From Candidatus Omnitrophota bacterium (GTDB lineage: Bacteria > Omnitrophota > Koll11 > Gorgyraeales > Gorgyraeaceae): a DNA stretch of 5,298 nt. Numbering within the stretch: the stretch's first letter is position 1; every line of letters begins with the position of its first letter. Of this stretch, positions 2,080 to 5,298 are shown piece by piece. The position numbers were made by a program, and so were the translations under genes. The notes below the pieces were generated by a model. The model worked only from the letters and a program-made list of their open reading frames with translations, ran no database searches and was not told where the DNA came from. Location: assembly GCA_018818505.1 (NCBI GenBank), contig JAHIRR010000320.1, forward strand, positions 1 through 5,298, written 5' to 3'.

Positions 2080-2108
2080 TTAACAAATCCTTACTTTTGT
2101 GCTATATT
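2080..2108 (+). promoter_or_regulatory. Sigma70-type promoter of the TPR-PilZ operon, predicted near-leaderless
   Basis: The -35 TTAACA is at 2080-2085, the spacer is 17 bp, and the -10 TATATT is at 2103-2108 with an extended TGC at 2100-2102. The -10 ends 9 bp before the ATG at 2118, so the start site should fall at the A/G/G of 2114-2116, giving a leader of about 2-4 bases. It is back-to-back with the comF promoter: only 6 bp (2074-2079) separate the two -35 boxes, so two polymerases could hardly bind at once. Confidence 0.75.
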
Positions 2109-2117
2109 GATTTAGGT

Positions 2118-2837
2118 ATGGATGATAGCACAGAGAGAAAGATAAGGGATCTGGAAGAGTGGAATAAAGAACGCAGCAGGATAAAACCTGTTATCGAAAG
2201 GGCCGTGGACTGCCATAATAAGGCCAGGGTCGAAGTGCGCTGGAAGAATTATGACACAGCCACAGGGCTTTATAAAGAGGCGATTAAATATTACAAGGAC
2301 GCAATAGCCCTGAACCCGAAGTATTACCTGCAGGATCTCATGGACAGGGTGGATCATGTCATAGAGGAGTACATAAATAATGCCTTTAGGTTGAAGACAG
2401 CAAGGGATGAGCTAAAGAGCGAAAGAGGCATAAAGGAATTCATGAGTTTTGTTGACAGATTAAAAGAGGGGGAACGCAGATATATAAATACATATGAGCT
2501 GGCTGACGCGTATTTGCGCATAGCTAATTTATACTATGATGAGGAAAAGTTTGAAAAGGCATGCGAATTTTATAACAAAGCAATCGATGTGAATTGCGAA
2601 CAATCTTTTATAAACCGGGAAAGCTATTTTAAGATAGGGAAGATCTTTTTTGAGGATGATAAGTTCAAGGAAGCGCTTATGAGTTTTGTTTCAGTTTTAT
2701 CTTTTGATAGAGGCAATGAAGAGGTTACGGATTACATAGATGAATGCCTTAAGAAATTGAAGATATCAGAATATAGAGAGAGGTTTCTTGTGGCAACGCC
2801 TAATGAGGCAAAGAAGCTTATTATGGAGGTATTATGA
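2118..2837 (+). CDS. TPR-repeat protein, unknown function
   Basis: This soluble 239-aa protein is rich in Lys, Glu, Tyr and Phe and has no signal peptide or membrane segment. Helical TPR-like units are visible at about residues 34-68 (ending KDAIALNP), 127-160 (YLRIANLYYDEEKFEKACEF then NKAID) and 166-199 (YFKIGKIFFEDDKFKEALMSF). A charged, probably helical linker lies at 75-120. Such repeats act as protein-protein scaffolds, so no enzymatic role is expected. The ATG at 2118 is preferred because an in-frame TTG at 2097 overlaps the -10 region and would not be transcribed. It is the first gene of a tight plus-strand run. Its stop overlaps the PilZ start (ATGA), suggesting translational coupling and possibly a joint function with a c-di-GMP receptor. 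Arginine is mostly AGA/AGG and isoleucine mostly ATA. Confidence 0.85.
   Translation: MDDSTERKIRDLEEWNKERSRIKPVIERAVDCHNKARVEVRWKNYDTATGLYKEAIKYYKDAIALNPKYYLQDLMDRVDHVIEEYINNAFRLKTARDELKSERGIKEFMSFVDRLKEGERRYINTYELADAYLRIANLYYDEEKFEKACEFYNKAIDVNCEQSFINRESYFKIGKIFFEDDKFKEALMSFVSVLSFDRGNEEVTDYIDECLKKLKISEYRERFLVATPNEAKKLIMEVL
2825..2830 (+). promoter_or_regulatory. Ribosome binding site of the PilZ gene
   Basis: GGAGGT inside the last codons of the TPR gene lies 3 bases before the ATG at 2834. It is strong in sequence but close to the start. With the ATGA overlap it fixes the PilZ start and fits translational coupling. Confidence 0.65.
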
Positions 2838-3208
2838 TAGACAGAAGGCGATATCCCAGATTTGAATTAAAGATCAATGCCAAGTATAGAATTGTGGACT
2901 CTGAGCAAGTGCTGAGATTCGGCAATCTGAAAAATATTTCTGCAGAAGGCATATGTTTTGAATCAGATCAAAGATTAAAACCGGGTAATCATGTGGGGTT
3001 AGAGGTGGATCTGGGTGACAGGGGTAAGCCTGTCAGTCTTACCGGGGAGATACTGTGGGCTATAGAGGTAAAAAGGTCCATGGACAAAGGGAAGAAATTC
3101 ATAAATGGAATAAAGCTGCTCGATGTCTCCAGTTCAGACGAGGGCAGATTTTTAAAATATTATTGCGGCAGGATGGTCGAGAAACTTTCAGGTTATTTAA
3201 AAATGTGA
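2834..3208 (+). CDS. Single-domain PilZ protein, predicted c-di-GMP receptor
   Basis: This 124-aa protein is essentially one PilZ domain. The RxxxR motif of the N-terminal c-di-GMP-binding loop is present at R5-R9 (RRYPRF, residues 5-10). The second motif, (D/N)xSxxG, is present as NISAEG at 34-39. Later beta-barrel strands are recognisable around VSLTGEILWA (67-76) and FINGIKLLDV (89-98), followed by a C-terminal helix (101-119). Both binding motifs are intact, so it is likely to bind the second messenger and change a partner's activity. Stand-alone PilZ proteins usually act through a partner, and the coupled TPR protein upstream is the obvious candidate, though that is inference. It starts in the TPR stop (4-nt overlap), and the next gene begins 2 nt after its stop. 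The likely processes (motility, exopolysaccharide, adhesion) cannot be chosen from this window. Confidence 0.92.
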   Translation: MIDRRRYPRFELKINAKYRIVDSEQVLRFGNLKNISAEGICFESDQRLKPGNHVGLEVDLGDRGKPVSLTGEILWAIEVKRSMDKGKKFINGIKLLDVSSSDEGRFLKYYCGRMVEKLSGYLKM

Positions 3209-3210
3209 CT

Positions 3211-3858
3211 ATGAAGAAAAAGAGCAAATTAAACCATATTATATCAGAATTATTGGAACACCTGCCGTATTCTGTTTTTGGCGTTACCGTAGGAATAATC
3301 ATGATGGGGCTTCTGACATTTATCTCGATCAGTTTAAATACAAAGCATCTATTGCCGAACGCTGCAAGCGAACTTTTTCATGTCTTTCACCCGGTCCATA
3401 TCCTTTTAAGTTCCATAGTGACTACAGCGATGTTCTGGAAGCATGAGAAACGTTTTCTAAAAACTATTTTCGTGGGCCTTGTCGGTTCTATCGCTATTTG
3501 CGGTGTCAGCGATATATTGCTCCCGTATCTTGGGGGCAAACTGTTTGGCTGCCATATGCATCTTCATATCTGTATTTTAGAGCATCCGGGCATTATCATT
3601 CCTTTTGCCTTTATAGGGGTGCTCTTCGGTTTTCTCGTGCCTTCTACGATTGAGAAGAGCACAGAGTTTTCCCACTCCATGCACGTCCTTGTAAGCAGTA
3701 TGGCGTCCATCCTCTATCTTATTTCATTCGGCATTACAGACTGGATCCATATGATAGGCGGCATATTTTTAATAACCATAGTCGCTGTAATGCTGCCCTG
3801 CTGCCTGAGTGATATCGTATTTCCCTTGAGCTTTGTAGATACTAAAGGAGGTAGTTAA
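3211..3858 (+). CDS. Six-helix membrane protein with 3+3 internal duplication and His/Cys-rich loop; family not recognised
   Basis: I do not recognise this 215-aa integral membrane protein. Hydrophobic segments lie at about 19-40, 61-77, 84-106, 126-144, 157-173 and 180-206. The halves resemble each other: HPVHILLSS (60-68) matches HSMHVLVSS (155-163), and SDILLP (100-105) matches SDIVFP (200-205), each at the same place in its half. The linker between halves holds C114, H115, H117, H119, C121 and H125, and H57/H60/H63 form an HxxHxxH run before TM2. Positive residues at the N-terminus (KKKSK) and at 77-81 put the N-terminus inside and the His/Cys linker outside. Three helices per half would make the halves inverted, as in many transporters. 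Metal binding or transport is an inference. No good ribosome site precedes the ATG. A GTG at 3205, overlapping the PilZ stop as GTGA, is an alternative start two codons earlier. Confidence 0.85.
   Translation: MKKKSKLNHIISELLEHLPYSVFGVTVGIIMMGLLTFISISLNTKHLLPNAASELFHVFHPVHILLSSIVTTAMFWKHEKRFLKTIFVGLVGSIAICGVSDILLPYLGGKLFGCHMHLHICILEHPGIIIPFAFIGVLFGFLVPSTIEKSTEFSHSMHVLVSSMASILYLISFGITDWIHMIGGIFLITIVAVMLPCCLSDIVFPLSFVDTKGGS
3844..3852 (+). promoter_or_regulatory. Ribosome binding site of the symporter gene
   Basis: AAAGGAGGT, a near-perfect Shine-Dalgarno, sits at the end of the membrane-protein gene, 5 bases before the ATG at 3858. It settles the start, since a second in-frame ATG four codons later lacks such a site. 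Confidence 0.8.
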
Positions 3859-5298
3859 TGCAACAGGCAATGAATCCGTCAACTCACCATGTGACAGCCC
3901 GCGAAGATCGCGTTTCTATTTTTCAAAAAGCCGTATACAGTATAGGAGGGCTCGTTAATAATATTCAGGCCGCCGCTCTTGGATCGATGGTCATTGTTTT
4001 GAACCTCGGATTAGGCCTGAATCCCGCTTTAGTCGGTCTTATCGGAGCCATTCCCCGTATTGTCGATGCCATATCAGATCCTCTTGTCGGTTACAGTTCA
4101 GATAATACCCGAACCCGATATGGACGCCGTAGGCCTTTTATATTCTTTGGAGCTCTTTCCGCGGGACTTTTATTCGCATTGATGTTCCAACTATATAAGG
4201 GGCATAGCGACAATTTCTATTTCTGGTATTTCTTAGGGTTCCAGGTTCTATTTTTCATCGGATTTACCTGTTATTCGATTCCATGGATCGCGCTAGGGTA
4301 TGAAATGACACCCGATTATCATGAGCGGACACGACTGCAGGGGGCCAGCAACTTTGTCGCTCAATTTGCATGGGTGATCGCTCCCTGGTTTTTCAAAATC
4401 ATGAACAACAAGAATATGTTTACAGATATTGTTCATGGAGCGCGGACCCTCGGGCTCATCGTCGGCGGCTTTATCATAGTTGGCGGCATACTTCCAGCTA
4501 TTTTCAACAAAGAGCGATTTGGCAACTTAGCAAAACCTGAAAGACTCAAGGGTCTTTGGAATACACTGAAAGACTTTTTCAGCGGTTTTGCGATTACCTT
4601 GAGATGCCGTCCGTTTGTAAAGCTTTGCGCGGCGACATTCCTGATCTTCAACGGATTCATGCTCGCTTCCGCCTTCTCAGCCTATGTTATTTTCTTCTAT
4701 GTTTATGGCGGCGATTATTCAAAAGGCGGGACATTGCTCGGCTGGTTTGGGTCGATCAGTTCCGTTTGTACTTTTTGCGTCATCTTCTTGACTACATGGA
4801 TCTCCACGAAGATCGGCAAGCGAAAAACCTTTTTAATTACCATTTCCCTTTCGATCATCGGTTACGCTTTGAAATGGATAGGGTATAATCCCGACCAGCC
4901 ATACTTACTACTGATCGCTGCTCCGTTCATAGCGTTTGGCCTGGGATCGCTCTTTACGCTGACCAGTTCCATGGTAGCCGATGTCTGCGACCTTGACGAA
5001 CTCCAGACCGGCACACGCAGAGAAGGCATGTTTAGCGCTGTTTACTGGTGGACGGTAAAACTAGGATTAGCAATTGCATCGCTCCTTTCCGGAATCCTCC
5101 TCAATGCGACCGGTTTTGATGTTGCATTAGGCGGCAACCAATCAGCTCAAACTTTATTGTATATGAGGATCTGCGATATCGGCATTCCGATCATAGCCTC
5201 TATTACCGCTATTTTTATTATTATGACCTTTAAAATCTCAGAAGCTAAGGCATATGACATTCGTAAGCAGGTCGAAAGACGAAGAGAAGAAAGACGAA
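3858..5298 (+). CDS. GPH-family (MelB-like) sugar:cation symporter, 3' end outside the window
   Basis: The first 480 residues are present with no stop before the window edge. It is an MFS-fold, about 12-helix transporter of the glycoside-pentoside-hexuronide:cation family. RIVDAISDPLVG (67-78) aligns with the MelB cation site: D70 and D74 correspond to MelB Asp55 and Asp59, and S73 to Asn58. It is followed by GYSSDNTRTRYGRRRPF (78-94), the family loop after TM2. The second hallmark, ADVCDLDELQTGTRREGMFS (374-393), is also intact. At the MelB sugar-binding Asp124 position this protein seems to have S140 (CYSIPW), so the substrate need not be a melibiose-like galactoside. The charged tail (462-480) is typical of a GPH C-terminus, so few residues should be missing. 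The start overlaps the preceding TAA by one base. Arginine codons are mainly CGN, unlike the TPR and PilZ genes. Substrate is unknown. Confidence 0.92.
   Translation, partial: MQQAMNPSTHHVTAREDRVSIFQKAVYSIGGLVNNIQAAALGSMVIVLNLGLGLNPALVGLIGAIPRIVDAISDPLVGYSSDNTRTRYGRRRPFIFFGALSAGLLFALMFQLYKGHSDNFYFWYFLGFQVLFFIGFTCYSIPWIALGYEMTPDYHERTRLQGASNFVAQFAWVIAPWFFKIMNNKNMFTDIVHGARTLGLIVGGFIIVGGILPAIFNKERFGNLAKPERLKGLWNTLKDFFSGFAITLRCRPFVKLCAATFLIFNGFMLASAFSAYVIFFYVYGGDYSKGGTLLGWFGSISSVCTFCVIFLTTWISTKIGKRKTFLITISLSIIGYALKWIGYNPDQPYLLLIAAPFIAFGLGSLFTLTSSMVADVCDLDELQTGTRREGMFSAVYWWTVKLGLAIASLLSGILLNATGFDVALGGNQSAQTLLYMRICDIGIPIIASITAIFIIMTFKISEAKAYDIRKQVERRREERR

What the first reader, a model, noticed from the sequence alone, without database searches (positions are those of the whole stretch)
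3211..3858. Unrecognised 3+3-helix inverted-repeat membrane protein with paired HxxH and SDIxxP motifs
Each half of this 215-aa protein has the same order: an opening His then a helix (H18 / H125), an HxxHxLxSS motif starting the second helix (60-68 / 155-163), and an SDIxxP motif ending the third (100-105 / 200-205). With three helices per half, the second copy sits upside down. That places matching His pairs and Asp-Pro motifs on opposite membrane faces, as expected of a small alternating-access transporter or channel. I cannot assign it to a known family. The duplication is read directly from the sequence; the transport role is inference.
Basis: partly seen in the sequence, partly recalled or inferred. 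Interest (0 to 1): 0.7.

Follow-up and report, generated by a model that had tools for sequence, protein, structure and literature searches.

The report
Unnamed family of metal-linked membrane proteins
This gene encodes a small, strongly conserved membrane protein of an unnamed family, built from two mirror-image halves; a third of the relatives examined sit beside genes that sense or import metals such as iron or nickel, so it may be an undescribed metal-uptake protein.

The parts
3211..3858 (+). the finding: 215-aa six-helix membrane protein (P0001), unnamed family
3244..3531 (+). first repeat, residues 12-107 (TM1-TM3)
   Evidence: hhalign; helices
3580..3831 (+). second, inverted repeat, residues 124-207 (TM4-TM6)
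   Evidence: hhalign; K/R topology
3259..3267 (+). H17-L-P19 at the start of TM1, predicted cytosolic end
   Evidence: H17 in 267 and P19 in 268 of 269
3388..3399 (+). H60-x-x-H63, predicted outer end of TM2
   Evidence: 267 and 269 of 269; topology
3508..3525 (+). S100-D101-I-x-x-P105, predicted outer end of TM3
   Evidence: D101 and P105 in 269 of 269
3565..3567 (+). H119, predicted outer side before TM4, no partner in the first half
   Evidence: 269 of 269
3673..3684 (+). H155-x-x-H158, predicted inner end of TM5
   Evidence: 269 of 269 for both
3796..3825 (+). P196-C197-C198-x-S200-D201-I-x-x-P205, predicted inner part of TM6
   Evidence: 268, 269, 268, 268, 262 and 269 of 269 for P, C, C, S, D and P
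2097..2837 (+). TPR-repeat gene upstream, overlaps the PilZ gene by 4 bases
2834..3208 (+). PilZ-domain gene, ends 2 bases before the ATG of the finding
3858..5298 (+). GPH-type sugar/cation symporter gene (MFS_2), runs off the window; its ATG overlaps the stop of the finding by one base

Best explanation
A small divalent transition-metal uptake permease of the cytoplasmic membrane, made by duplication and inversion of a three-helix unit. Shown: the duplication, a topology from charge, near-invariant residues, and metal-gene neighbourhoods at a third of the relatives examined. Inferred: that an outer cluster (H60, H63, D101, perhaps H119) and a mirrored inner cluster (H155, H158, D201 or C197/C198, perhaps H17) hold the metal in turn as it crosses, and that the neighbouring repressors switch the gene off when metal is plentiful, which points to uptake. 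The metal is not settled: iron(II) is slightly favoured, nickel and zinc are open.
For: Near-invariant His/Asp/Cys on a duplicated scaffold. In 92 loci: a Fur-type gene within 300 bp in 10, NikR-type in 10, FeoB in 5; any of Fur/NikR/FeoB/DtxR within 5 kb in 30; Pfam confirms the representatives scanned. Fur within 300 bp in 4 of 80 genomes against 0.09 expected. Fur neighbours lie on several branches of the tree. The archaeal NikR-like protein keeps the four nickel-ligand positions of E. coli NikR as I recall them. A TTAWTAA-N15-TTAWTAA palindrome around a TATA-like box lies between it and the family gene in 10 of 10 divergent pairs, 7 exact and 3 with one mismatch. With up to 2 mismatches, 14 genomes hold 12 matches against 2 for the backward control: ten are the gaps the pattern was built from, one lies beside another NikR-like gene, one beside ZnuA and ABC-ATPase genes. 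In the clade of the Methanocellales records a split FeoB ends about 13 bp before the gene in 5 of 6 loci.
Against: No transport data. 62 of 92 loci, the window included, lack those four gene types within 5 kb. FeoB is as common in genomes with the gene (65 of 78) as without (67 of 78), so the gene neither replaces nor needs FeoB. D201 is Gly in 7 of 269. The best structural match is a potassium-permeable channel family, at modest Z. The neighbours point to more than one metal.
Confidence: 0.55

Rival explanations
1. A metal efflux or overflow permease: same sites, opposite direction, induced rather than repressed by metal.
For: Small 3+3 metal exporters exist (recalled, e.g. MntP and RcnA of the LysE superfamily). 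In 3 of 92 loci an ArsP_1 permease gene, whose nearest NCBIfam models are Cu/Zn and SaoE efflux transporters (below cut-off), precedes the Fur gene.
Against: Fur, NikR and DtxR proteins mostly repress uptake genes when metal-loaded (general knowledge); the shared palindrome also lies upstream of a ZnuA-type importer gene in one genome.
Confidence: 0.15
2. A membrane partner of anaerobic Fe-S or metal-cofactor assembly (Mrp/NUBPL ATPases, NifX- and NifU-type proteins), supplying or sensing metal rather than transporting on its own.
For: MinD/NUBPL-type ATPase genes within 5 kb in 16 of 92 loci, radical SAM (COG0731-like, recalled label) in 8, NifX-type in 5 (Pfam). MrpORP is reported to transfer Fe-S clusters (PMC6345978, passages).
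Against: 76 of 92 loci lack the ATPases within 5 kb; the conserved residues lie in helices near both faces.
Confidence: 0.13
3. A haem- or redox-active membrane protein with His ligands.
For: Many conserved His; a hemC gene within 300 bp downstream in 6 of 92 loci and hemB within 5 kb in 5 (Pfam for one of each).
Against: The His pairs are three residues apart on one helix, which suits a metal ion better than an axial haem pair (inference); the hem neighbours fall in one branch of the tree.
Confidence: 0.08

Closest known systems
TRIC cation channels (prokaryotic family, Pfam PF03458)
   Different: No sequence relation found; no GGG motif in P0001; six helices, not seven; aligned as TM2-TM6 of this protein on about TM1-TM5 of TRIC, as if circularly permuted (inference). 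Foldseek ranks other families first by E-value.
ZIP zinc/iron transporters (BbZIP)
   Different: More helices and other motifs (recalled); Z within the background rows.
LysE-superfamily metal permeases (MntP, RcnA, CadD)
   Same: 3+3 inverted repeat and metal ions (recalled).
   Different: None of these families is among the 11 Pfam families listed for 17 members, and none among the 3 NCBIfam rows for 22 members.
FeoB
   Same: Adjacent in 5 of 92 loci and likely the same kind of substrate there.
   Different: No sequence match; genome-wide co-occurrence not enriched.

Membership tests
TRIC channel | profile match to the TRIC Pfam families | tested here: not met
   0 Pfam families for P0001; not among the families matched by 17 members; hhalign probability 0.1 against a profile of only 3 PF03458 proteins, a weak test
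TRIC channel | two inverted three-helix units | tested here: met
TRIC channel | glycine-triplet kinks in TM2 and TM5 | tested here: not met
   no GGG in P0001; which helices correspond is inferred
TRIC channel | overall fold | tested here: inconclusive
LysE superfamily (MntP, NicO/RcnA, Cad, TerC) | Pfam profile match | tested here: not met
   none for P0001 and none among families listed for 17 members
LysE superfamily (MntP, NicO/RcnA, Cad, TerC) | shared fold | tested here: inconclusive
   not seen among the rows shown, which cannot exclude it
ZIP transporter | Pfam profile match | tested here: not met
ZIP transporter | shared fold | tested here: inconclusive
transition-metal permease (functional class) | moves or binds a metal ion | not testable with these tools
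   only context and conserved candidate ligands
transition-metal permease (functional class) | genomic link to metalloregulators or metal importers on separate branches | tested here: met
   absent within 5 kb at 62 of 92 loci
NikR regulon (archaeal subfamily B only) | NikR_C regulator acting on a dyad operator at the promoter | tested here: inconclusive
   regulator family and palindrome are present, binding is untested; half-site spacing differs from the TRTTA-N15-TAWTA described for H. pylori (PMC9696931, passage)

The most novel reading that the evidence does not exclude
A new family of one-gene transition-metal importers, spread across bacteria and archaea, built on a circularly permuted TRIC-like fold with mirrored His2-Asp(Cys) sites near the two faces, and placed independently under three unrelated kinds of metal-sensing repressor (Fur, NikR, DtxR).
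Probability: 0.3. Interest if true: 0.8.

Novelty: new variant of a known kind. Interest (0 to 1): 0.6.

Why it matters
[quoted passage not shown] A 215-aa candidate with near-invariant ligand-type residues, and an archaeal repressor and palindrome that look dedicated to it, make the question directly testable. Its possible likeness to a cation-channel fold would bear on how inverted-repeat transporters and channels arise.

Tried and rejected
Riboswitch upstream: Rfam scans of the window and 59 loci gave one tRNA and one tmRNA only. Substitution for FeoB: not supported. ZnuB-type permease (PF00950): over cut-off in 41 of 80 genomes, many hits weak; the only link noted is G434, near the extra palindrome. 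Phage or defence protein: PHROG best E 0.21, no PADLOC hit, no phage-record match, best viral Foldseek E 0.62. GltPh, YetJ and bestrophin rows in the fold searches: judged chance. Weak genome hits L119 and L040: judged chance. Pfam 6TM_2nd_PGAP2IP (E 0.0036, 2 of 17 members): judged chance. P0197, a piece of ZnuA in frame with a family member, is one cluster (3 members, 13 contigs); not used as proof, since the ZnuA part is partial. The models' coordinates are not returned, so distances between the conserved residues and the superposition of the halves were not measured.

Limits of the counts. The 92 loci are those of 98 chosen from the held loci in which my ORF set contained the family gene; 6 were dropped, and other held loci, mostly shorter cuts of the same places, were not counted. 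Two of 271 sequences were lost in trimming. The 269 include close relatives (effective number about 85). Neighbour HMMs were built from the same loci in which they were counted, and distances run between open frames, so they can be too short by some tens of bases. For the Fur expectation I copied genome sizes and hit numbers by hand and read the observed distances off; I left out five genomes with only weak Fur hits. The 80 genomes are 80 of the 137 I had listed, chosen because I held their neighbourhoods. Searches used 78 genomes each; some of the 78 'without' are inferred from not being in the match table. Two searches scored only the candidates sharing most words, and each listing shows 120 rows.

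Not in print: keyword searches of an open-access library listed no paper that I recognised as about this family; with no name to search for, they cannot exclude one.

Full report
What is there. The window carries a TPR gene, a PilZ gene, the 215-aa gene of the finding and a GPH-type symporter gene, tightly packed on the + strand, opposite a ComF-like and an LptF/G-like gene. Its nearest named homologues are from Omnitrophota MAGs. An in-frame GTG at 3055 would make a 267-aa ORF, but the ATG at 3211 fits the listed homologues, 191-235 aa long.

The family. P0001 has no Pfam, NCBIfam, PADLOC or PDB sequence match; two PHROG rows (E 0.21 and 0.57) look like chance. A profile of 17 diverse members finds no PDB chain up to E 10, and scans of single members give only scattered weak rows. 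Homologues: 744 at E 1e-3, 1108 at E 0.1 and 5599 at E 0.01, the last two from capped candidate lists. Readable names in the rows shown say 'hypothetical protein'. Genome searches found it in 94 of 285 genomes of the phylum of an Omnitrophota MAG, 22 of 196 of the phylum of a Methanocellaceae MAG, 5 of 299 of the phylum of a Bacillota MAG, one of them a chance hit, and 19 of 199 of the phylum of a Brocadiaceae MAG. Two main subfamilies appear: A (the window; mostly H57, C97, C121) and B (mostly Y, A, G at those places).

The duplication. Profile comparison of the halves is significant, with shuffled, reversed and unrelated-membrane-protein controls far weaker. The register pairs P19/P131, H60/H155, H63/H158, S67/S162, C97/C197, S100/S200, D101/D201 and P105/P205. 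H17, H119, C121 and C198 are conserved without a matching partner. Counts over 269 sequences are. The main exception among the key residues is D201, Gly in 7 of 269; L007, L009 and L012, of the Fur-hemC branch, are examples.

Neighbourhood. In 92 loci: Fur-type gene within 300 bp in 10; NikR-type within 300 bp in 10; FeoB within 300 bp in 5; DtxR-type within 5 kb in 5; MinD/NUBPL-type within 5 kb in 16; hemC within 300 bp in 6. Any of Fur, NikR, FeoB or DtxR within 5 kb: 30; none: 62, the window among them. On the tree (several supports are low) Fur neighbours occur at L007/9/12, L068, L013/16/21, L083, L078, L178 and L179, at least five places. L068, sister to the window's clade (support 0.90), has a Fur gene about 125 bp away, then NifX- and MinD-type genes and a NifU-type gene further on. 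In L002, of the window's clade, a CorA-type gene starts about 40 bp downstream. The four Fur-type proteins scanned score better against Fur or PerR models than against Zur, all below cut-off. In the 80-genome set the numbers of Fur genes near the family gene exceed expectation: within 300 bp 4 against 0.09, within 5 kb 7 against 0.63.

Archaeal switch. In ten loci a NikR-like gene (about 127 aa) is divergent from the family gene. A 29-bp palindrome, TTAWTAA-N15-TTAWTAA, around an ATTTAAWT box lies between all ten, 7 exact and 3 with one mismatch. With up to 2 mismatches, 14 genomes hold 12 matches, backward control 2: the ten gaps from which the pattern was drawn, one in G339 between a NikR-like gene and a gene with a sub-cut-off Ferrochelatase match, and one in G434 upstream of ZnuA and ABC-ATPase genes, with an ABC-3 permease and two FeoB_C matches on the same contig. 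All ten genomes also carry another, better-scoring NikR elsewhere, so this one looks dedicated, and its metal need not be nickel.

Mechanism. Fur, NikR and DtxR are mainly known as metal-activated repressors of uptake genes (general knowledge), so uptake is the likelier direction. The near-invariant His, Asp and Cys residues near both faces suit a two-site metal path. Not shown: transport, binding, direction, metal. Iron is favoured by FeoAB, DtxR-, Fur/PerR-like, hem and Fe-S genes; nickel by NikR types, including a strong NikR_C protein close downstream of a subfamily A gene (L067); zinc by the ZnuA links.

Against. Most loci have no such neighbour; FeoB presence does not differ between genomes with and without the gene (65 and 67 of 78); the best fold match is a potassium-permeable channel family at modest score; no riboswitch was found.

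Literature. Seen as passages only: PMC8351635, PMC6345978, PMC2667541, PMC9696931, PMC5477506. The passages shown do not describe this family.

Noticed in passing
L198:9001-9267: Plasmid EAL2_808p of Peptoclostridium acidaminophilum DSM 3953 encodes a stretch 34% identical to residues 123-215 with no gene annotated over it; it may be a remnant.
   Followed up: partly
L091, L092, L093, L096: A recurring cluster around the family gene: MinD/NUBPL ATPases, a radical SAM gene and, where scanned, ARMT1-like phosphatase, metallo-beta-lactamase-fold and TrmO genes; a methyltransferase gene was judged by eye.
   Followed up: partly
G434 contig C259 (L191): Two FeoB_C matches, an ABC-3 permease, an ABC ATPase and ZnuA genes on one contig, with a copy of the palindrome upstream of ZnuA.
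   Followed up: partly
L013, L016, L021: ArsP_1 permease and Fur genes before the family gene in all three; the gene between them is DUF1980 (TIGR03943) in L013, the one scanned.
   Followed up: partly
P0197: 301-aa predicted protein with a partial ZnuA domain in frame with a family member.
   Followed up: partly
P0180: 254-aa member in which the stretch from the end of TM3 into TM4 appears twice.
   Followed up: no
window 2097-3208: A TPR gene and a PilZ gene precede the finding; the TPR gene is found at 6 of the loci clustered, the window included.
   Followed up: no
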